From Sipunculus nudus (taxonomy: Eukaryota > Annelida > Sipuncula > Golfingiida > Sipunculidae), in NCBI GenBank assembly GCA_026874595.1, contig CM049317.1, forward strand, positions 52,593,618 through 52,657,617: a stretch of 64,000 bases of DNA, given 5' to 3'. This document shows, piece by piece, positions 53,341-63,850 of this stretch. Numbering within the stretch: position 1 is the stretch's first letter; each line of letters opens with the position of its first letter. The notes beneath the pieces are model-generated. The model was not told where the DNA came from. It did no database searches and saw nothing but the letters and a program-made list of their open reading frames with translations. The position numbers and the translations under genes are program-made.

Positions 53341-55760
53341 ATGTTTCTGCTAATCGCGAGTTTTATGTTCCTGTGTCCAAGTCTCTCAGTCTCAGCTTTT
53401 GATCAAGCTAAAGGCAGCAGTAAGAAACTTTCGCTTCTTTATTGAATCCTCCAGAATTATATGCGTTCATCTGCGTTCGTGTATGTTACTGTGTGTGTGT
53501 TTGTTTGTTCACGATTTGACCCACGCAATCATGAACGGAATCTCACGTAATTTTCAGGGCATTTCCATAATGAGTTCTGGAAATAGAGATTAGATTTTGG
53601 TATGAATCCAGCACATAATTCGGAATCAGAAACGTCATCAATGAACCAGGGGTCTCTACGCTCAGCTGAATTTGTCAATAAGGATTTTTTTTAAAGATTT
53701 TTCCCAGAATAACGGTCCTGTGACCTTAACCACTGACCCTGTGACCAAAAAATCTGAGAACTTATTGGAATGCATACACATTCCTTTTAGTGTAGGTCCT
53801 GTGACTTTGACCTTTGGACCCCAAAATCGACAGGGTTCTTACCTTAGTGGTGAGCCATATATAAGTCAAGTTTGAAACCAAAATGTCAAACTAAACTTCA
53901 GTTATGATCTGGAAATTAATTTGTGAACAGATAACCCCTGTGGCCTTGACCTTTGACATTGTGACCCAAAATTCATTTAGGCTCTCCCCATACTGGAAAG
54001 TAAGCTAAATGTGCAAGATGTACAAGAAGAAAGTTTTGGATGAAAAGCTTGGCTTAAAATGTAGCCATAATCTTATTAAATAAGTGAGTCGAGTGACCTT
54101 GACCTTTGACCTCATGAGCCAAAAATCATATAGGTTCTTTCTTTAGTGGTGGACCATGTGCAATTCACGTTTGAAAACCATGTGCCAATCCAACCTGGAG
54201 TTATCATCTGGAAACAAATTTATTTGGATGGACGGACACACAGACAGACAAACTGACAGACAGGCAGGGTGATAACTATAGGGCATCCACTTGTGATCAA
54301 TAAACACACCAGGTTTTGGGACCTTAGATGGAATCACAGATGAGAAACTGACATGATTGTTGTCATTTTAAAGTAAAAAAATTAGAAAAAAATATTCGTA
54401 AAAATAAGAAAAAAAAAAACAGGTGGCGCCACAAATTTACTGGAACTAACAAAACTAGTTATGGTCAATATTCAAGGCAAGATTTATGACAATTCATGCA
54501 TTAATTATCAAGACATTGGAGGTTTTGTATCAAATTTTTGATTATTCTGGGGGGTACTTACAAGTCCCATAGCTCAAGGGATATAGGTCCCAGTGATCTT
54601 ATTTAAGGTTTCCAATGAGATTTACTATGGACCTCCCTAGATTTTTTAGTTACATGCTGCTAGGGTCAGTGGTTACGATTTGTGCCCTGCAATCGGACGG
54701 CCAGACGGACGACGGACAAAGCACCATACGTAAACCTCAGGCGACTTACAGTCAGCTGAGCTAAAAATGATGAATAAAACAATCGTTTGTGCACGAATGA
54801 ACATGGAAATATGGTTATATATAATATATATAGTTTTAATTAAAATAACATGCGCAGAATCCAGACCAAGATACTAAGAAAGAAAATATGAACGCCGTAT
54901 GCATCACGGACGATCTTGAAACTCCTTATATGCTTCCGTTTTGCAGAACAAAACTCGGCTGTACAAATTATAAAGTCACCGGGCACATACAAGGAAGCTG
55001 AGGAAACATGTGGACACCTCAGTGACGGACCATGGCAGTTACCGTCACCAGATCAGTCTATGTCGGAACTAACCTGGCATGAGCATTTAATAGAAAATCT
55101 TAGGACGGAAAATTACGCTGCCATATGGTTAGCTTTAACAAAAGAAAGATTGCCTGGCTGGAAGAATATAGACAACAGTATATACGGTAGGGATACACAT
55201 CTTGAAATACAGAAAATATGTAAGAAAGGCTACTCATAGTTTACGTTGCTGGTATACAAGGGAATGTCTGTTCAGGGCAGTGAGTATAGCATATACATGT
55301 ACGTTCAGTTCTGTTTACTCGTTCTGCATTAACATAATGTCCATAAAGCTTTAGAGTCTTTCGTCTTTAGCTTTCAGTTTTTTTCAACTTAATCTAGCTT
55401 ATGTTTTCCTATCTTCTATACCCAGGTGTCAGAACCATATATAATGTGATAACAACCGTTTTATGCTTTAATTAAACAAAAGTATGGTGTGGTGTCGGGC
55501 TATGACACTTACCTGATAATTCTGTCATTTAAATTATGGTTAATAGTCTTTTGATATTCCCATTGATACTGCCTGACACATGGTTACCAAGATCTACTCT
55601 ATCTTTATTCAGCTGGTCGAGTACAAGAAAACGGTGACGTCAGAAAAACTTGCGGCCTAGTGAAACTGAGATACGAGGCAGCTGTGAGCGACTTCTGTGA
55701 AAGTTCCGGTTATGGATATATTTGTCAAATAAAAAGTAAGATTCTTTCACTCATATATTC

Positions 55761-55816
<56 letters not shown>

Positions 55817-58800
55817 GGTAGTGTTACCCTCCGATGTAAAGTGCTCTATGGCCTACAAGCTAGGCCAGAGCGGTATAACTCTGAAGAAAAACAACACTGT
55901 TAATTCACAACAGACTGTTTCACGGGATGCGACCCGATCATCAGGTGAATTTCACATTTCACAAGCCTACTTCGGAGAATGCGATGGAAGGCATTCCATT
56001 TCGAAAACCCTGGTCAAACTTCAGATAAACAAAACTATGGATTCAAAACCACATATTCACCCCCTCATAGCGAACACCTCAGGGCATTTGAAAGTGATAT
56101 CTACGAAATGGTCCGGAACATTGAATTTCAGCACTCACACAATGCATTCCAGAAACAAATGGCCAATGACATCAAAACAATCAGACAATCTGACAATCTC
56201 CTAGTACAGGCAGATAAGACAACCAACCTGTACAGTATGCCGAAAGAACACTACAATAAACTTCTTACAGAAAACATCACTAAGACATACAAAAAAGCAG
56301 ACAGAAATATCTGTAAAAATATCAATACAGAAGCCAAAGAAATAGCCGGTTCCCTTAACCTAGCAGACCGCATTGAAGTCATGGCCGAGCGCAATGCTTA
56401 CATTACTTTGAAAGACCACAAGGATAATTTTGAACAAAACCCCAAGTGCAGATTGATTAATCCAGCAAAATCTGAAATAGGTATCATTAGCAAAAAGCAC
56501 TTGGAAAAAATTAATAGCCAACTGAGACTGAAAACCAAACTCAACCAGTGGCAAAATACCGCACAGGTAATATCTTGGTTCAAGAAATTGAAGCTGAAAC
56601 AAAAATCTAAGTTCATAAAGTTTGATATTGTTAACTTTTACCCCTCGATCACAGAAGATCTTCTCATGAAAGCCCTCAAATTTGCCAAAACCATGGTCTC
56701 CATTCCAGAGGATGTTATCAAAACCATCCTGCACAGCAGGAAAAGCTTACTGTTTAGCAACGGTAACACCTGGGTGAAAAAAGATCACACTAGTTTTGAC
56801 GTCACCATGGGCAGTTTTGATGGCGCTGAAGTATGCGAAATTGTTGGTTTATACATCCTAGATATGTTGAAAAAGGAATTTGGTGTAAATGCTCTAGGCC
56901 TGTATCGTGATGACGGTTTAGGTTGTTTCCCCAACATGTCTGGACCCAAAGCAGACAGCACCCGTAAGAAAATGATCAAACTCTTTTCCAATGTTGGGTT
57001 AAAGATAACCATTGAAACTAACCTGACCTGCACAGATTTCTTAGACGTAACATTTGACCTCCAAAATGACATCTTCTACCCTTACAGAAAACCGAACAAT
57101 GACCCTCTCTATATCCACGCACAATCCAATCACCCCCCAGCTATCATTAGGCAGATACCTATGATGATCAGTAAACGTGTTTCTGACAACTCCTGCAATA
57201 AAGAGCTATTTATGAAAGCCAAACCCATGTATGATGAAGCTTTAGCGAAAAGCGGGTTCTCAGAAAGCTTAAAATATGTTGAACCAACAGTGAAAAGCAA
57301 GAGAAACAGGAAAAGGAAAATAATATGGTTTAATCCACCCTACAGCCGTCATGTAAAAACCAACATTGGCAGAAAATTCATGAAACTAGTTGAAAAACAC
57401 TTCCCTCAACATCACAGGTACCACAGGTTATTCAACAGGAACAATTTGAAAATTAGCTACAGCTGTCTACCCAACATGTCTAACCTGATCAGCAAACATA
57501 ATATGAAGGTTCTAAATTCTGACAATGCTGTGAATGCACCCCAAAAACAATGTAACTGCCGTAAAAAAGACGAATGTCCTATGAATGGTCAATGTCAGCT
57601 GAAATGCATTGTCTATAAAGCAACAGTTAGAACAGACAATGACGTGAAACACTACATAGGGTGTACTGAAGGTGATTTCAAGACAAGATATAATAACCAC
57701 AAGCAATCCTTTCGGAACAGATCCCACGCTAAAAACACTGAACTGTCTAAACACATTTGGTCACTAAAAGACAACAATATCAATTACAAGCTCTCCTGGG
57801 AAATATCTGCCAAGGCAGCACCTTACTTCTGTGGGACTAGGAAGTGTGATCTCTGCTTGTCTGAAAAGCTACTTATAGCTACTGCCCCCCCTGGATCATT
57901 GTTGAACTCAAGAGCTGAAATTCTCTCCAAGTGCCGCCATCAAAACAAATTCACCCTGAAATATTTTAAAACCTAGCATTCGTACTAATATTCAGCGTGC
58001 CCCCTTAACCCCCCCCCAACCAGGATCCGCTGGGCAGACTCATTTGTTCAGGTAGTTCTCTCACTGCTGGCTCGTGGAGTCCATTGGATGACAGGAAAGT
58101 TCTACTTTATCCTGGTCTAATGGGCTTTACGACCTTCAGCTAGGAGACTTGCACAACTTGGTATGGGTATAGTATATTTGCCTTTTATATTGTATATTGT
58201 ATATTGTATATTGTATATTTGCCTTGTATATTGTGTATTTTCACAGTATATGTGTATTTTTATCATATCATATGTATACTACTGATATGTTCACTGCTTC
58301 CAAGGCCCTATTAGAAATCATTTCAATATGCTGATTGAGCATCCTGGTTATATCTTTGTATTACATTTACTATTTACTACATTATATAACCTCTTTGCCC
58401 TGCCCTGTTATGTTCCAGTATCGCACGTGTACCCCGACCAATCCTATTGTGCACCCGAGAACAATAGGATCAGTGTCAGTCTTTCACATGCCCCCCCCCC
58501 CCCCGACCCGAATCGCACAAAGCATAATCTCGTAATCTCGTAAAGTCTCGGCTTTTCAAACCACGACGTTAGCTTCATTCTAACCACATTCACCTGATGA
58601 TCGGGTCGCATCCCGTGAAACAGTCTGTTGTGAATTAACAGTGTTGTTTTTCTTCAGAGTTATACCGCTCTGGCCTAGCTTGTAGGCCATAGAGCACTTT
58701 ACATCGGAGGGTAACACTACCTTCTACTCCAGCTCCAGCGACAGGTACGTTGTCGAGCACTTTTGTTAACCCACCCTGTCCAGAAATTCAACTTGTAACA

Positions 58801-61688
58801 TCTACAGAATGAACAAAGCTAACTTCAACTACTCTTTGAAAAACATTCCCATCCCTAGTAATCTGTCCTATACCAAATCCCTGATAAGTAAAGTTGAAAG
58901 CCTACTTCGGAGAATGCGATGGAAGGCATTCCATTTCGAAAACCCTGGTCAAACTTCAGATAAACAAAACTATGGAATCAAAACCACATATTCACCCCCT
59001 CATAGCGAACACCTCAGGGCATTTGAAAGTGATATCTACGAAATGGTCCGGAACATTGAATTTCAGCACTCACACAATGCATTCCAGAAACAAATGGCCA
59101 ATGGCATCAAAACAATCAGACAATCTGACAATCTCCTAGTACAGGCAGATAAGACAACCAACCTGTACAGTATGCCGAAAGAACACTACAATAAACTTCT
59201 TACAGAAAACATCACTAAGACATACAAAAAAGCAGACAGAAATATCTGTAAAAATATCAATACAGAAGCCAAAGAAATAGCCGGTTCCCTTAACCTAGCA
59301 GACCGCATTGAAGTCATGGCCGAGCGCAATGCTTACATTACTTTGAAAGACCACAAGGATAATTTTGAACAAAACCCCAAGTGCAGATTGATTAATCCAG
59401 CAAAATCTGAAATAGGTATCATTAGCAAAAAGCACTTGGAAAAAATTAATGGCCAACTGAGACTGAAAACCAAACTCAACCAGTGGCAAAATACCGCACA
59501 GGTAATATCTTGGTTCAAGAAATTGAAGCTGAAACAAAAATCTAAGTTCATAAAGTTTGATATTGTTGACTTTTACCCCTCGATCACAGAAGATCTTCTC
59601 ATGAAAGCCCTCAAATTTGCCAAAACCATGGTCTCCATTCCAGAGGATGTTATCAAAACCATCCTGCACAGCAGGAAAAGCTTACTGTTTAGCAACGGTA
59701 ACACCTGGGTGAAAAAAGATCACACTAGTTTTGACGTCACCATGGGCAGTTTTGATGGCGCTGAAGTATGCGAAATTGTTGGTTTATACATCCTAGATAT
59801 GTTGAAAAAGGAATTTGGTGTAAATGCTCTAGGCCTGTATCGTGATGACGGTTTAGGTTGTTTCCCCAACATGTCTGGACCCAAAGCAGACAGCACCCGT
59901 AAGAAAATGATCAAACTCTTTTCCAATGTTGGGTTAAAGATAACCATTGAAACTAACCTGACCTGCACAGATTTCTTAGACGTAACATTTGACCTCCAAA
60001 ATGACATCTTCTACCCTTACAGAAAACCGAACAATGACCCTCTCTATATCCACGCACAATCCAATCACCCCCCAGCTATCATTAGGCAGATACCTATGAT
60101 GATCAGTAAACGTGTTTCTGACAACTCCTGCAATAAAGAGCTATTTATGAAAGCCAAACCCATGTATGATGAAGCTTTAGCGAAAAGCGGGTTCTCAGAA
60201 AGCTTAAAATATGTTGAACCAACAGTGAAAAGCAAGAGAAACAGGAAAAGGAAAATAATATGGTTCAATCCACCCTACAGCCGTCATGTAAAAACCAACA
60301 TTGGCAGAAAATTCATGAAACTAGTTGAAAAACACTTCCCTCAACATCACAGGTACCACAGGTTATTCAACAGGAACAATTTGAAAATTAGCTACAGCTG
60401 TCTACCCAACATGTCTAACCTGATCAGCAAACATAATATGAAGGTTCTAAATTCTGACAATGCTGTGAATGCACCCCAAAAACAATGTAACTGCCGTAAA
60501 AAAGACGAATGTCCTATGAATGGTCAATGTCAGCTGAAATGCATTGTCTATAAAGCAACAGTTAGAACAGACAATGACGTGAAACACTACATAGGGTGTA
60601 CTGAAGGTGATTTCAAGACAAGATATAATAACCACAAGCAATCCTTTCGGAACAGATCCCACGCTAAAAACCCTGAACTGTCTAAACACATTTGGTCACT
60701 AAAAGACAACAATATCAATTACAAGCTCTCCTGGGAAATATCTGCCAAGGCAGCACCTTACTTCTGTGGGACTAGGAAGTGTGATCTCTGCTTGTCTGAA
60801 AAGCTACTTATAGCTACTGCCCCCCCTGGATCATTGTTGAACTCAAGAGCTGAAATTCTCTCCAAGTGCCGCCATCAAAACAAATTCACCCTGAAATATT
60901 TTAAAACCTAGCATTCGTACTAATATTCAGCGTGCCCCCTTAACCCCCCCCCCCCCCCAACCAGGATCCGCTGGGCAGACTCATTTGTTCAGGTAGTTCT
61001 CTCACTGCTGGCTCGTGGAGTCCATTGGATGACAGGAAAGTTCTACTTTATCCTGGTCTAATGGGCTTTACGACCTTCAGCTAGGAGACTTGCACAACTT
61101 GGTATGGGTATAGTATATTTGCCTTTTATATTGTATATTGTATATTTGCCTTGTATATTGTGTATTTTCACAGTATATGTGTATTTTTATCATATCATAT
61201 GTATACTACTGATATGTTCACTGCTTCCAAGGCCCTATTAGAAATCATTTCAATATGCTGATTGAGCATCCTGGTTATATCTTTGTATTACATTTACTAT
61301 TTACTACATTATATAACCTCTTTGCCCTGCCCTGTTATGTTCCAGTATCGCACGTGTACCCCGACCAATCCTATTGTGCACCCGAGAACAATAGGATCAG
61401 TGTCAGTCTTTCACATGCCCCCCCCCCCCCCGACCCGAATCGCACAAAGCATAATCTCGTAATCTCGTAAAGTCTCGGCTTTTCAAACCACGACGTTAGC
61501 TTCATTCTAACCACATTCACCTGATGATCGGGTCGCATCCCGTGAAACAGTCTGTTGTGAATTAACAGTGTTGTTTTTCTTCAGAGTTATATATATATAT
61601 ATATATATAAAAGAAACATATTACCTGTATTTAGTATTATTTAAAGCAATTGAAAATTAACTTAATAGATTAAGGAGCAGAACAAATG

Positions 61689-61728
<40 letters not shown>

Positions 61729-62590
61729 ATATTGATTCTTCATTTCTTCGATAGATTGTACCGTCTGTCATCCAGAAATCTCCCCTCACAACTGTTTAAT
61801 TATGGAGGAGAACTGTTACATCCTGGGCTGTGACGCGGGAAGCTGGTTCGAGGCTAGCAACAGATGTGTTTCCATGGGAACAACGCTCGCCACATTACGC
61901 TCTGAGGATGAAGTTGTCACATTAGTGAGGAAGATCAAACGAAGACCAAACAACCCATGTCAGCACTTCTGGGTAGGGAATCTTAAAGCCAAGTGGAGTT
62001 TCCGAAATAGCCAAGGTAAAAGTTTTTGTCAATGCCGCCAATGGGTCGGGTTTGTTAAGAATACACTCTCTTTACTTAAGGATACATTCTCTTTACTTAA
62101 GGTCTACTATATATACCTAATTTTCAGATTTAAATAACTCACGAATCATTGTATATTTTTTTTACTTTGCAAAGCAACGTTTAATAAATTTTTAGTAACT
62201 TGTTTATTAAAATGCAGCGTTCATGTATAGTCAGTAAATATGTTTAGTAAATATACAGTAATTAGTATCACTGCAGGTCTCCGGTACAGTCATGTACCTA
62301 GAGTATTTTAAAAGAGTCAAAGCTAATATTGTTAACGTATTTGTTTTTAGGAGGGAAACCTCCTGATATATATTACTGGTATATCGGTCACCCTGTTCCT
62401 GGCTTCAACTGTGCCACATTCAGGAAATTTGACGTCGGGTATTACTGGGCATCCACAGACTGCCAGGCTAGGCATGAGTTTGTCTGCATAAAAGGTAAAT
62501 ACCTAACTAGTGCATGGCAGTACATTTATATGTATATATTCAAATCTGTTCTAATGTCTTCATTAGTCTTTAGCTTTGGATCATGGAAGG

Positions 62591-62640
<50 letters not shown>

Positions 62641-63073
62641 GAAAACTTTTTTTGTTTTTAATTCAAGGATATAAAAAATGCCTCAATAATTCTGATATAG
62701 AATGCCTTTAAGGGGATATAAAATAAAAAAAACTGTTGCCTTTTTTTTACAGAAAACGGAAGTATGATAAATGACTCGGTGACTGTCACATCTCGATCAC
62801 AAGAAAATACAACTGGTATGTTAAGAAATAACCCGATTTATTTTCCAGATAAGATATATGTTCATTCTTTCAGTTAAAACTTCATTCTTTCAGTTAAAAC
62901 AAATAATTCACGTGATATGTATCATAGCACATCATGTTTAACATGGGCATTTTGTAGCTGAAAAAAATATGAACTATAGAATTTGAATAAACAACTCAGA
63001 CAATACTGATTCTAATGTAAGCTGTCGCAGCATTTAGCACAATAGTAAAATATGAAATGAAGTTTGCGAAGCT

Positions 63074-63119
<46 letters not shown>

Positions 63120-63555
63120 CTGGTGATTTCATATTTCAGAAGAGATCTTGTCCAAGAATAAACATGGGACACGTCCTTGTCATACAGCGGCGTCCAGTAA
63201 GTAATAAAGTTTCAATTGGGAATCGATTACAACTGTATATTCTAGGTCATATTTTAAGAACTTTGCGGATCATTATATGAAATATAAAAATTATTTTACC
63301 AATATAACAATATATACCGTATTGGCTTAATGTAATTTGAATTTCGTTTGATTGTTATGTTGAGAGTAGTATGACAATAAACAGTTCTGTGCCGTACCGT
63401 GAGGCATAAAATGCATATAAACATTTCTATATTTTAGGCGGTGTCCTTCTTCAAAGAAACTTCTATTTACTTATTGTTACTCTCGTCATGATGCTGATCC
63501 TGCTAATTTTAATAGGAGTGCAGACTATCCTTTTAATGAAAAGGTGCAATATCAG
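53341..63555 (+). CDS. C-type lectin-like receptor, copy C (signal peptide, two CTLDs, TM; 3'-partial)
   Basis: Exons: 53341-53419, 54947-55186, 55613-55735, 61755-62015, 62351-62494, 62753-62815, 63140-63196, 63438-63555, all open and joined in phase 1; the next junction is phase 2 and lies beyond the window. The first exon starts at an ATG directly after an acceptor (TTTGTTACAG) and encodes a signal peptide (MFLLIASFMFLCPSLSVSA), so a non-coding exon lies upstream. Exons 2-3 give a divergent CTLD1 (AAIWLALTKE, then GYGYICQ). Exons 4-5 give CTLD2 (CYILGCDAGSWFEASNRC, CQHFWVG, GYYWASTDC, FVC) with VPG in the EPN place. The stalk follows with an NTT glycosylation site, then transmembrane LLIVTLVMMLILLILIGV and MKR stop-transfer. 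About 361 residues are visible. Likely an extracellular recognition receptor. The intron 55736-61754 holds the Penelope-like dimer in the same orientation. Confidence 0.8.
53430..53660 (+). repeat. Interspersed repeat, GGAACGTCATCAAGG family, copy 4
   Basis: Diverged copy in the first intron of copy C. Landmarks are CGTTCGTGTATGTTACTGTG, CATGAACGGAATCTCACGTA and AGAAACGTCATCAATGAAC. It lacks the far end. Confidence 0.5.
53700..54310 (+). repeat. Interspersed repeat with TGACCTTTGACCT units, second block
   Basis: Four sub-units of about 140 bp carry GTGACCTTAACCACTGACC (53717), GTGACTTTGACCTTTGGAC (53799), TGGCCTTGACCTTTGACATT (53941) and GTGACCTTGACCTTTGACCT (54093). It ends with GGACGGACACACAGACAGAC and CTATAGGGCATCCAC. 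Same family as 7320-8620. It lies in the first intron of copy C. Confidence 0.7.
54420..54762 (-). repeat. Hairpin-ended repeat fragment
   Basis: Ends at 54733-54762 with a variant of the hairpin (CTCAGGCGACTTACAGTCAG). Upstream it has GACGGACGACGGACAA and GTTACGATTTGTGCCCTGC, the latter also seen near 8553. Boundaries approximate. Confidence 0.5.
55763..55811. repeat. (AT)n microsatellite, left flank of the Penelope-like array
   Basis: AT run that directly joins the inverted terminal fragment at 55812. The right end of the array (61590) joins another AT run at 61589-61608, so the array is embedded in AT repeats on both sides. Confidence 0.9.
55812..55950 (-). repeat. Inverted terminal fragment of the Penelope-like array
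   Basis: 139 bp, an exact reverse complement of 58588-58726 by eye. Its inner end coincides with the outer base of hammerhead stem I. Confidence 0.85.
55903..55950 (-). ncRNA. Hammerhead ribozyme, minus strand
   Basis: Exact reverse-complement copy of the 48-base motif described at 58588-58635. It would act only in transcripts from the minus strand. Confidence 0.6.
55979..57976 (+). CDS. Penelope-like RT/GIY-YIG protein, N-terminally truncated, 665 codons
   Basis: Same protein as the unit 2 ORF but starting at an internal Met (MRWKAFHFE); the first 34 codons are absent. It differs at only a few residues: Asn for the second Asp in motif A (FDIVNFYPS), Thr for Pro before ELSKHIW, Asp for Gly early, Ser for Gly in the INSQLRL segment. 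RT, Cys-rich and GIY-YIG regions are otherwise complete and open. Whether it is translated is unknown, since the natural start and leader are lost. Confidence 0.75.
   Translation: MRWKAFHFENPGQTSDKQNYGFKTTYSPPHSEHLRAFESDIYEMVRNIEFQHSHNAFQKQMANDIKTIRQSDNLLVQADKTTNLYSMPKEHYNKLLTENITKTYKKADRNICKNINTEAKEIAGSLNLADRIEVMAERNAYITLKDHKDNFEQNPKCRLINPAKSEIGIISKKHLEKINSQLRLKTKLNQWQNTAQVISWFKKLKLKQKSKFIKFDIVNFYPSITEDLLMKALKFAKTMVSIPEDVIKTILHSRKSLLFSNGNTWVKKDHTSFDVTMGSFDGAEVCEIVGLYILDMLKKEFGVNALGLYRDDGLGCFPNMSGPKADSTRKKMIKLFSNVGLKITIETNLTCTDFLDVTFDLQNDIFYPYRKPNNDPLYIHAQSNHPPAIIRQIPMMISKRVSDNSCNKELFMKAKPMYDEALAKSGFSESLKYVEPTVKSKRNRKRKIIWFNPPYSRHVKTNIGRKFMKLVEKHFPQHHRYHRLFNRNNLKISYSCLPNMSNLISKHNMKVLNSDNAVNAPQKQCNCRKKDECPMNGQCQLKCIVYKATVRTDNDVKHYIGCTEGDFKTRYNNHKQSFRNRSHAKNTELSKHIWSLKDNNINYKLSWEISAKAAPYFCGTRKCDLCLSEKLLIATAPPGSLLNSRAEILSKCRHQNKFTLKYFKT
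58588..58635 (+). ncRNA. Type I hammerhead ribozyme, unit junction copy
   Basis: Order of parts: stem I strand ATTCAC (58588-58593), core CTGATGA (58594-58600), stem II CGGG/CCCG with loop TCGCAT (58602-58615), core GAAA (58617-58620), short stem III ACA/TGT, cleavage triplet GTT with predicted cut after 58629, and the other stem I strand GTGAAT (58630-58635), which pairs perfectly with ATTCAC. The only irregularity is U opposite U at the base of stem II. Hammerheads in Penelope-like terminal repeats are established knowledge. Activity here is inferred. Confidence 0.75.
58809..60911 (+). CDS. Penelope-like reverse transcriptase with C-terminal GIY-YIG endonuclease, 700 aa
   Basis: Start: first ATG after the junction (MNKANFNYSLKNIPIP). 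RT palm: motif A FDIVDFYPSI at about residue 250, and motif C LYRDDGLGCF at about 343, with Arg in the place where many RTs have Val or Ala. A Cys-rich finger-like CNCRKKDECPMNGQCQLKC is at about 559-577. The GIY-YIG nuclease follows: VYKATV, HYIGC (about 591), FKTRYNNH with the catalytic Arg (about 602) and ELSKHIW with the catalytic Glu (about 620). Endonuclease C-terminal to RT is the canonical Penelope order, not the permuted Naiad/Chlamys order. Host-element role: RNA-templated DNA synthesis primed at a nicked target. Intact and probably recently active. Confidence 0.9.
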   Translation: MNKANFNYSLKNIPIPSNLSYTKSLISKVESLLRRMRWKAFHFENPGQTSDKQNYGIKTTYSPPHSEHLRAFESDIYEMVRNIEFQHSHNAFQKQMANGIKTIRQSDNLLVQADKTTNLYSMPKEHYNKLLTENITKTYKKADRNICKNINTEAKEIAGSLNLADRIEVMAERNAYITLKDHKDNFEQNPKCRLINPAKSEIGIISKKHLEKINGQLRLKTKLNQWQNTAQVISWFKKLKLKQKSKFIKFDIVDFYPSITEDLLMKALKFAKTMVSIPEDVIKTILHSRKSLLFSNGNTWVKKDHTSFDVTMGSFDGAEVCEIVGLYILDMLKKEFGVNALGLYRDDGLGCFPNMSGPKADSTRKKMIKLFSNVGLKITIETNLTCTDFLDVTFDLQNDIFYPYRKPNNDPLYIHAQSNHPPAIIRQIPMMISKRVSDNSCNKELFMKAKPMYDEALAKSGFSESLKYVEPTVKSKRNRKRKIIWFNPPYSRHVKTNIGRKFMKLVEKHFPQHHRYHRLFNRNNLKISYSCLPNMSNLISKHNMKVLNSDNAVNAPQKQCNCRKKDECPMNGQCQLKCIVYKATVRTDNDVKHYIGCTEGDFKTRYNNHKQSFRNRSHAKNPELSKHIWSLKDNNINYKLSWEISAKAAPYFCGTRKCDLCLSEKLLIATAPPGSLLNSRAEILSKCRHQNKFTLKYFKT
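61515..61562 (+). ncRNA. Type I hammerhead ribozyme, 3' terminal copy
   Basis: Identical to the copy at 58588-58635, with predicted cleavage after 61556. The two predicted cuts (58629 and 61556) are 2927 bases apart, which equals one element unit. Confidence 0.75.
62596..62636. repeat. (AT)n microsatellite
   Basis: AT run of about 40 bp in the intron after CTLD2 of copy C. Another lies at 63078-63116 just before the next stalk exon. Confidence 0.9.
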
Positions 63556-63650
63556 GTAGGTCAATATGACAAAGAGGGCCATACTTTATTAATTACGTTA
63601 TCATCATGGTAAATGATATATAATATGTTATGTTGAAGCTCTTTAAACAT

Positions 63651-63850
63651 GGGGTAGGACGTAGCCTTGTGGTTAAGGCGTTTGACATCGGAGCTGGAGG
63701 TCCCCGGGTCGAACCCCGCCGGTGCCTCGATGGCATAATGGGGAAATCTCGCTATAGAACCTCAGAGATTCGCTCTAATGTCTTAACAACAGGTTAAGAC
63801 TTCTGCATTATTCCTAACCTCGTGCACATAAAACCTGGTATCCAGAAGGT
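63651..63850 (+). mobile_element. tRNA-derived SINE
   Basis: A-box-like TAGCCTTGTGGTTAAGGCG (63662-63680) and B box GGGTCGAACCC (63706-63716) with tRNA-like spacing, then a body including ATAATGGGGAAATCTC. It lies in the intron after the transmembrane exon of copy C. The 3' end is approximate. Confidence 0.65.

What the first reader, a model, noticed from the sequence alone, without database searches (positions are those of the whole stretch)
55812..61590. Hammerhead ribozymes bracketing a Penelope-like dimer
Three identical 48-base motifs have all parts of a type I hammerhead: CTGATGA, a GC stem II, GAAA, a GTT cleavage triplet and a perfect 6-bp stem I (ATTCAC/GTGAAT). The two + copies have predicted cuts at 58629 and 61556, exactly one element unit (2927 bases) apart, so a read-through RNA would be cut into a full monomer with the ORF. 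The family association is known; the copy is nearly identical between units and may be active. The stem II base has an unusual U-U apposition.
Basis: partly seen in the sequence, partly recalled or inferred. Interest (0 to 1): 0.75.

Follow-up and report, generated by a model that had tools for sequence, protein, structure and literature searches.

The report
Self-cutting RNA motif in Penelope retroelement
The window holds a Penelope-type jumping gene with copies of a tiny hammerhead-type RNA motif; such motifs are already known in these elements, but the junctions of many copies in this genome suggest that new insertions are copied from RNA that the motif has not cut.

Summary
In detail: three identical 48-mers (58588-58635 +, 61515-61562 +, 55903-55950 -) carry every part of a minimal type I hammerhead, predicted cuts 2927 nt apart. 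Rfam finds no hammerhead, even at E 10. Minimal hammerheads in Penelope-like elements and the U10.1-U11.1 mismatch are both published: a new member of a known kind. The host genome has 1593 exact copies of the 33-nt core; I read junctions in 160 loci. Copies mostly end 35 or 97 nt past the predicted cut, next to (TA)n, rarely at it. In 47 of 53 close head-to-head pairs one arm ends at +35, the other at +97. Of 171 unique arms, 34 start at the A of TCATTC, 53 nt before the first base after the cut; 3 start at the cut. An untemplated G often precedes that A. Best reading: a capped transcript starts 11 nt before the hammerhead; reverse transcription starts at +35 and +97 on the two sides of the target break and reads through an uncut hammerhead, also giving short hammerhead-only copies. 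Cleavage is untested; its role, perhaps making circles that seed tandem arrays, stays open.

The parts
55812..61591 (+). Whole Penelope-like insertion: inverted left arm, 5'-truncated unit 1, full unit 2, terminal part of a pseudo-LTR; set in a (TA)n tract
   Evidence: Repeat analysis, mapping to the 2927-nt unit, flanks
55812..55950 (-). Inverted left arm: reverse complement of 58588-58726, outer end at +97 past the predicted cut
   Evidence: 139 nt, 100% complementary; unit coordinates
55903..55950 (-). Hammerhead motif, minus-strand copy
   Evidence: Exact 48-mer
55979..57976 (+). ORF of unit 1 (665 aa), lacks the first 35 codons of unit 2's ORF; RT motif YRDDG and YIG motif read by eye
58575..58580 (+). 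TCATTC, initiator-like; A at 58577 = inferred first base of the capped transcript (repeated with A at 61504)
   Evidence: 34 of 171 unique arms start here; untemplated G before it; Inr consensus recalled
58588..58635 (+). Hammerhead motif, plus copy 1; predicted cut 58629|58630
   Evidence: Exact 48-mer
58604..58608 (+). GGTCG at +28 to +32 from the inferred start: matches the recalled DPE consensus RGWYV, inside hammerhead stem-loop II
   Evidence: Sequence; consensus recalled, function not tested
58620..58628 (+). ACAGTCTGT, near-palindrome forming stem III; would give an 8-bp stem between two hammerheads
   Evidence: Position; two-strand hammerhead fold -26.3 kcal/mol; T/A centre variant in the listing
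58664..58664 (+). +35 end: commonest 3' end of the genomic copies read (GAGTTATA|TATATA); used at 61591 in this insertion
   Evidence: 56 of 97 resolved ends; 812 exact ends genome-wide
58665..58726 (+). 'Tail' between the two ends (+36 to +97): predicted two-hairpin RNA structure
   Evidence: fold -26.2 kcal/mol; 469 exact +97 ends genome-wide
58809..60911 (+). ORF of unit 2 (700 aa): reverse transcriptase-like with C-terminal GIY-YIG-like part
   Evidence: weak RVT_1 match E 0.0033, below cut-off
61515..61562 (+). Hammerhead motif, plus copy 2; predicted cut 61556|61557
   Evidence: Exact 48-mer

Best explanation
This is a Penelope-like retroelement (PLE), inserted as a partial tandem in a (TA)n tract, with a minimal type I hammerhead close to the inferred 5' end of its transcript. 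Proposed cycle: (1) transcription starts at the A of TCATTC (58577 and 61504), 11 nt before hammerhead stem I, and the RNA is capped; (2) the element's protein breaks both strands of (TA)n DNA; (3) each 3' DNA end primes reverse transcription inside the RNA, one at +35 and the other at +97, on either side of a tail hairpin; (4) both cDNAs read upstream through a hammerhead that is intact in the template, until the RNA's 5' end or a drop-off; (5) their ends are joined head to head. This gives the inverted arm of the window and, when the start lies in the 5'-most unit, short hammerhead-only copies (88 or 150 nt). Steps 1, 3, 4 and 5 are inferred from junctions; step 2 rests on published biochemistry of a related PLE; cleavage by the hammerhead is neither shown nor needed for the insertions seen. 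Its role is inferred only: it would remove the 53-nt capped leader, or yield circles from tandem transcripts.
For: Exact motif copies. 1593 exact 33-nt cores in the host genome. 3' ends of 97 resolved copies from 80 loci: +35 56, +97 23, +33/34 5, the cut 1. Exact (TA)n-abutting ends genome-wide: 812 at +35, 469 at +97. 47 of 53 head-to-head pairs with less than 100 bp between arms are one +35 and one +97 arm; where loci were picked by one end type, the partner was the other in 11 of 12 and 20 of 20. Starts of 171 unique arms: 34 at -52, 62 at -54..-47, 3 at the cut; background about 0.45 per position. Base before the -52 A: G in 9 of 14 distinct single arms (T in the other 5), against 7 of 64 single arms with other starts (Fisher 8e-5). 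Genome-wide: C 933 (templated), G 160, T 81, A 46 of 1220 exact matches. Four pairs among the places listed carry the G on both arms. Short target duplications outside pure (TA)n, e.g. L061, L062, L088. [quoted passage not shown]
Against: No RNA data: the start site is inferred from DNA junctions, and the initiator, DPE and cap-G ideas are recalled. Six of 53 close pairs do not read as +35/+97 (L009, L030, L044, L064, L076, L105; L105 is cut by the locus edge, L030's partner ends at +90); of three wider pairs one is 97/97 (L019). L075 and L084 share their junction and may be one event. In the related PAc element the two RT starts showed no strand preference in vitro. Of +35 arms, 42 of 103 with a resolved start run past -54 and 21 more run off the fetched stretch, so templates reaching upstream of the start are about as common as those ending there. 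The 3 starts at the cut are a mild excess over neighbouring positions (0.53 expected, P 0.016); two of them (L016, L141) are clean, so cleaved templates may be used rarely. Protein evidence is weak: RVT_1 below cut-off, no GIY-YIG match. The hammerhead fold is not the minimum for one motif, nor for two strands (-26.3 against a plain duplex at -29.5).
Confidence: 0.72

Rival explanations
1. One reading: read-through RNA is cut at both hammerheads into a linear monomer that carries the ORF and serves as the insertion template.
For: Cuts are exactly one unit apart; the motif is conserved better than flank in 19 copies not chosen for it: 9 of 893 against 79 of 1769 changes, loop III centre dropped (copies not independent); a mild excess of starts at the cut (3, P 0.016).
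Against: A cut template would end at the cut; 3' ends sit mostly at +35/+97 and 3 of 171 arms start at the cut, one ambiguous.
Confidence: 0.07
2. Hammerhead cuts plus host ligation make one-unit RNA circles; reverse transcription round the circle gives the multi-unit arms, beside capped linear templates that give the short copies. (Overlaps the best explanation, which leaves the hammerhead's role open.)
For: Tandem arrays up to 10 units on - and 15 on + head to head on C12; units within an arm differ by 2.2 on average, between arrays by 7.9 per 655 sites, 0 of 2000 label shuffles as extreme; unit lengths differ among arrays. The review PMC7761336 (passages) proposes this for retrozymes.
Against: Homogeneous arrays also follow from a homogeneous source array or unequal crossing-over; the C15 array is not homogeneous (6.2 differences within) and C12 and C15 have no private fixed variant; no circRNA seen.
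Confidence: 0.25
3. Head-to-head arms arise by self-priming on an antisense template, as suggested for rotifer PLEs in 2013.
For: Inverted junctions are often short palindromes (seven exact AATT-centred ones); proposed in PMC3846280 (passages).
Against: Snap-back copies should end alike on both sides; 47 of 53 close pairs end at two different places, and some junctions carry untemplated G on both arms.
Confidence: 0.1
4. The -52 boundary is an RT pause or processing site, not a transcription start.
For: It lies next to a structured motif; starts scatter by a few nt.
Against: A pause at a structure is expected on its 3' side, not 11 nt beyond its 5' side; an untemplated G is not expected from a pause.
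Confidence: 0.12

Closest known systems
Minimal type I hammerheads of Penelope-like elements (Cervera and de la Pena 2014; Lunse, Weinberg and Breaker 2017, whose title reports cleavage as dimers); both known here only from reference lists and from passages of PMC7761336 and PMC6155905
   Same: Minimal type I core, very short stem III, place in tandem pseudo-LTRs, many dispersed copies
   Different: U10.1-U11.1 in place of the usual G-C; how common that is among PLE hammerheads I could not check, since neither paper is held
PAc, a Poseidon-type PLE of Anolis carolinensis (PMC11167929, section 3 read whole)
   Same: Hammerhead near the 5' end of the ORF RNA, two internal RT starts with the tail between, AT-rich targets, both strands used, hammerhead cut not needed for insertion in vitro
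   Different: Here one start goes with each arm in 47 of 53 close head-to-head pairs, the targets are mostly (TA)n tracts, and the RNA 5' end can be placed from junctions
Penelope elements of the rotifer Adineta vaga (PMC3846280, passages)
   Different: The word hammerhead does not occur in that text; junctions explained there by self-priming; a TATA box plus Inr-like TCACT proposed
Metazoan retrozymes (PMC7229834, passages)
   Same: Type I hammerheads in short non-coding repeats of animal genomes that also hold PLEs
   Different: Retrozymes are 150-450 bp tandem repeats with canonical hammerheads; the short copies here are single or paired 88/150-nt cDNA fragments of a PLE leader
Natural hammerheads with a U10.1-U11.1 mismatch (Perreault 2011, PMC3088659, passages)
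   Same: The same variation at the base of stem II
   Different: Whether those examples belong to PLEs was not in the passages seen; the text says the mismatch supports more cleavage than any other mispair

Membership tests
Hammerhead ribozyme, type I | Core CUGAUGA ... GAA with A15.1-U16.1 and H17 | tested here: met
   Read directly, three exact copies
Hammerhead ribozyme, type I | Three stems, stem I open to both sides | tested here: met
   Stem I 6 bp, stem II 4 bp, stem III 3 bp by complementarity; the fold is not the predicted minimum
Hammerhead ribozyme, type I | G10.1-C11.1 at the base of stem II (usual, not universal) | tested here: not met
   U.U; 0 genome matches with non-U at both places and the same stem III; natural U.U examples published
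Hammerhead ribozyme, type I | Match to Rfam hammerhead models | tested here: not met
   None at gathering or E up to 10
Hammerhead ribozyme, type I | Self-cleavage at the predicted site | not testable with these tools
   Needs RNA
PLE dimeric minimal hammerhead | Self-complementary stem III that can be shared by two motifs | tested here: met
   ACAG(T/A)CTGT; two-strand hammerhead fold -26.3 kcal/mol, though a plain duplex scores -29.5
Penelope-like element | Single ORF with PLE/telomerase-like reverse transcriptase | tested here: inconclusive
   YRDDG read by eye; RVT_1 E 0.0033, 17.6 bits against cut-off 29.6
Penelope-like element | C-terminal GIY-YIG endonuclease | tested here: inconclusive
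Penelope-like element | Pseudo-LTRs, partial tandems, inverted 5' arm, tail at one end | tested here: met
Penelope-like element | Place within the PLE RT tree | not tested
   No PLE protein reference set on hand
Retrozyme | Non-coding short tandem repeats with canonical hammerheads | tested here: not met
   The window copy codes for a 700-aa protein and its hammerhead is minimal

The most novel reading that the evidence does not exclude
Two kinds of template feed this element. Capped linear RNA, whose initiator lies just before and whose downstream promoter element may lie inside the hammerhead, gives short mobile leader copies with an uncut hammerhead. Hammerhead-made circles, read round and round by the reverse transcriptase, give long head-to-head tandem arrays (10 + 15 units on one chromosome). 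The hammerhead would then be a switch between translation or short copies and array formation, and one insertion would as a rule use the two RT starts on opposite sides of the break.
Probability: 0.22. Interest if true: 0.8.

Novelty: new member of a known kind. Interest (0 to 1): 0.52.

Why it matters
What hammerheads do for Penelope-like elements is called a mystery in the 2020 review that I read in passages (PMC7761336). The junction record of a genome with over a thousand copies bears directly on part of it: most templates of the copies read were not cut at the motif next to the RT start. It also offers a simple origin for dispersed hammerhead motifs (cDNA from the RNA 5' end to the internal RT starts), and makes two claims testable with RNA data: a capped start 53 nt before the first base after the cut, and a usual +35/+97 pairing of the two cDNA arms.

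Tried and rejected
Rfam cmscan at gathering and at E 10: no hammerhead; the 15 sub-threshold matches are to other families. Search of viral contigs for the motif and for the protein: nothing. Pfam, NCBIfam and PDB sequence searches: only the weak RVT_1 match is of use. tRNA scan: 0. Relatives with non-U at both 10.1 and 11.1 and the same stem III: 0. Considered and rejected: that the loose core pattern alone is strong evidence; that G before the -52 A in paired arms proves a cap (the partner's complement can supply it), so only single arms were used for the test; that L165 is a clean cut-site start (microhomology). Dropped rows: 5 innermost array units (L175, L183, L194, L204, L208) that run into junction or host DNA; arms that run off the fetched stretch, 21 of +35 and 6 of +97 type; arms with the same flank and head as another in the 171; L067 in the 14 single arms; of the 80 clusters on C1, the last four were not fetched, nor were the C2 places of that list. 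The counts are not freed of duplicated loci (L066/L067 and L075/L084 share flanks or junctions) and include two internal tandem copies (L027) that reach the end of the reference. Papers not held: PMC4209133, PMC5785218, PMC5850863. Passages of PMC11371274 and PMC10018344 gave nothing on cap-derived G in insertions; that idea is recalled. Nine paper searches: in the listings (titles and starts of abstracts) and in the passages that I opened I saw no report of the +35/+97 pairing or of a cap-marked PLE start; most subscription papers are not in the library, so this is no proof of absence.
Full report
What is in the window. Three identical 48-base motifs lie at 58588-58635 (+), 61515-61562 (+) and 55903-55950 (-). 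Each has a 6-bp stem I, the CTGATGA box, a 4-bp stem II closed by a U.U apposition, GAAA, a 3-bp stem III and a GTT cleavage triplet. The two plus copies are 2927 bases apart. They sit in a Penelope-like retroelement made of a 5'-truncated unit (ORF 55979-57976, 665 aa) and a full unit (ORF 58809-60911, 700 aa), with an inverted 139-nt arm on the left. The whole insertion, 55812-61591, lies in a (TA)n tract. Rfam's hammerhead models do not match. The protein shows RT and GIY-YIG motifs to the eye, but the only library support is a sub-threshold RVT_1 match.

Where the copies end. The host genome (G000, 1.43 Gb) holds 1593 exact copies of the 33-nt core. I read three samples: 80 loci from 76 of the 80 core clusters on C1 (L009-L088), 40 loci chosen by a +35 end on C2 (L089-L128) and 40 chosen by a +97 end on C3 and C4 (L129-L168). 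Positions count from the predicted cut: +1 is the first base after it and 0 the last base before it, so the A of TCATTC is -52. In the first sample 97 of 99 motif copies had a 3' end inside the fetched stretch: 56 at +35, 23 at +97, 5 at +33 or +34, one at the cut (L021, a diverged copy), the other 12 elsewhere, two of these being internal copies of a tandem. The ends mostly abut (TA)n. Genome-wide there are 812 exact +35/(TA)n ends and 469 exact +97/(TA)n ends. So the RNA that was copied mostly spanned the cut site.

Pairs. Arms joined head to head with less than 100 bp between them number 53; 47 consist of one +35 arm and one +97 arm. By sample: 16 of 21, 11 of 12 and 20 of 20. The last two samples were picked by one end type, so only the partner counts there. 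The six others are L009, L030, L044, L064, L076 and L105; L105 is cut by the locus edge and the partner in L030 ends at +90. Three wider pairs are 35/97-continuing (L012), 97/97 (L019) and 97/35 (L023). L075 and L084 share a junction and may be one event. The window insertion itself has +97 on the left and +35 on the right. Flanks of 47 pairs were compared; most are pure (TA)n, where a target duplication cannot be told. Outside it, 8-bp repeats are seen in L061 and L062 and a 7-bp one in L088 (with two bases of slack); L025 and L143 gave none. The simplest reading is two cDNAs primed from the two ends of one break, each using its own RT start on either side of the tail hairpin, then joined. 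The PAc work (PMC11167929, section 3) shows cutting and extension of both strands and two internal RT starts, but reports no difference in start between strands in vitro.

The 5' start. Of 171 unique arms with a resolved start, 34 begin exactly at -52 and 62 between -54 and -47, against about 0.45 per position in the background; 3 begin at the cut. Those 3 are a mild excess (0.53 expected, P 0.016); L165 is ambiguous by microhomology, L016 and L141 are clean. The base at -52 is the A of TCATTC, 11 nt before stem I. Among 15 single arms that start there, the preceding base is G in 9 and T in 6 (two of these share a flank), while single arms with other starts have G in 7 of 64 (Fisher 8e-5 after removing the duplicate). 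Genome-wide the base before this A is C, the templated one, in 933, G in 160, T in 81 and A in 46 of 1220 exact matches; 14 of the 46 A cases belong to seven palindromic pairs. Four pairs in the listing have the G on both arms. An untemplated G at an A within an initiator-like hexamer is what reverse transcription of a capped RNA end would leave; the cap idea and both promoter consensus sequences are recalled. GGTCG at +28 to +32 from that A fits the recalled DPE and falls inside stem-loop II. Of +35 arms, 42 of 103 with a resolved start go past -54 and 21 more run off the fetched stretch, so templates that extend upstream of the start (multi-unit RNA or circles) are about as common as those that end there.

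Short copies. Of the 80 first-sample loci, 34 hold at least one arm that starts between -56 and -36, a hammerhead-only copy. These are explained as cDNA from the RNA's 5' end to the nearest RT starts.

Is the motif kept? In 19 arms of the second sample, not chosen for the motif, the 48 positions show 19 changes of 912; 10 of these are the T/A at the centre of loop III and 3 are at the cleavage-site base, where A is still allowed by the recalled NUH rule. The flank -150 to -53 shows 79 of 1769. Without the loop III centre the difference is 9 of 893 against 79 of 1769. These copies share ancestry, so the test is only suggestive. U10.1 and U11.1 did not vary in the 19, and no genome match has a non-U at both places with the same stem III. 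The stem III sequence ACAG(T/A)CTGT is nearly self-complementary; two motifs sharing it fold to -26.3 kcal/mol against -6.9 for one motif in the hammerhead fold. Against this, the two-strand minimum is a plain duplex at -29.5.

Arrays. A tag near the ORF start occurs 155 times and reveals tandem arrays, the largest with 10 tags on the minus and 15 on the plus strand, head to head, on C12. Across 35 of 40 fetched units (5 innermost dropped), units within an arm differ by 2.2 per 655 sites on average, the two C12 arms by 3.0, and different arrays by 7.9; 0 of 2000 label shuffles were as extreme. The C15 array is an exception (6.2 within), and C12 and C15 have no private fixed variant. Unit lengths also differ among arrays (Kruskal p 0.0015). 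For most arrays this fits one source unit per array, as rolling round a circle would give, but does not exclude a homogeneous source array or unequal crossing-over.

Verdict. The motif is real, is a new member of the PLE hammerhead group, and its U.U is a known natural variant (PMC3088659, passages). What is worth a second look is not the motif but the junction record around it: ends past the cut, the pairing of two different ends, and an RNA start marked by an extra G. Cleavage itself, the promoter and the circle route remain untested.

Noticed in passing
window 54990-63560: The insertion lies between exon-like stretches that read as a C-type lectin-like membrane protein (e.g. WFEASNRCVSMGTTLATLRSEDE near 61845, a hydrophobic stretch near 63450); read by eye, not searched.
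   Followed up: no
window 63650-63735: A tRNA-like stretch (TAGCCTTGTGGTTAAGG ... GGGTCGAACCCC) that looks like a tRNA-derived SINE head; ARAGORN reports no tRNA.
   Followed up: partly
G000:C12:49442327-49510653: A head-to-head array of 10 + 15 tandem units of this element, about 68 kb.
   Followed up: partly
G000, listing: Two main motif subfamilies differ at the centre of loop III (ACAGTCTGT against ACAGACTGT); two listed copies have a 3-base insertion next to the cut (C1:80559431, C1:98766824).
   Followed up: partly
L061, L062, L088: Insertions outside pure (TA)n with readable 7-8 bp target duplications, good for studying the target cut.
   Followed up: partly
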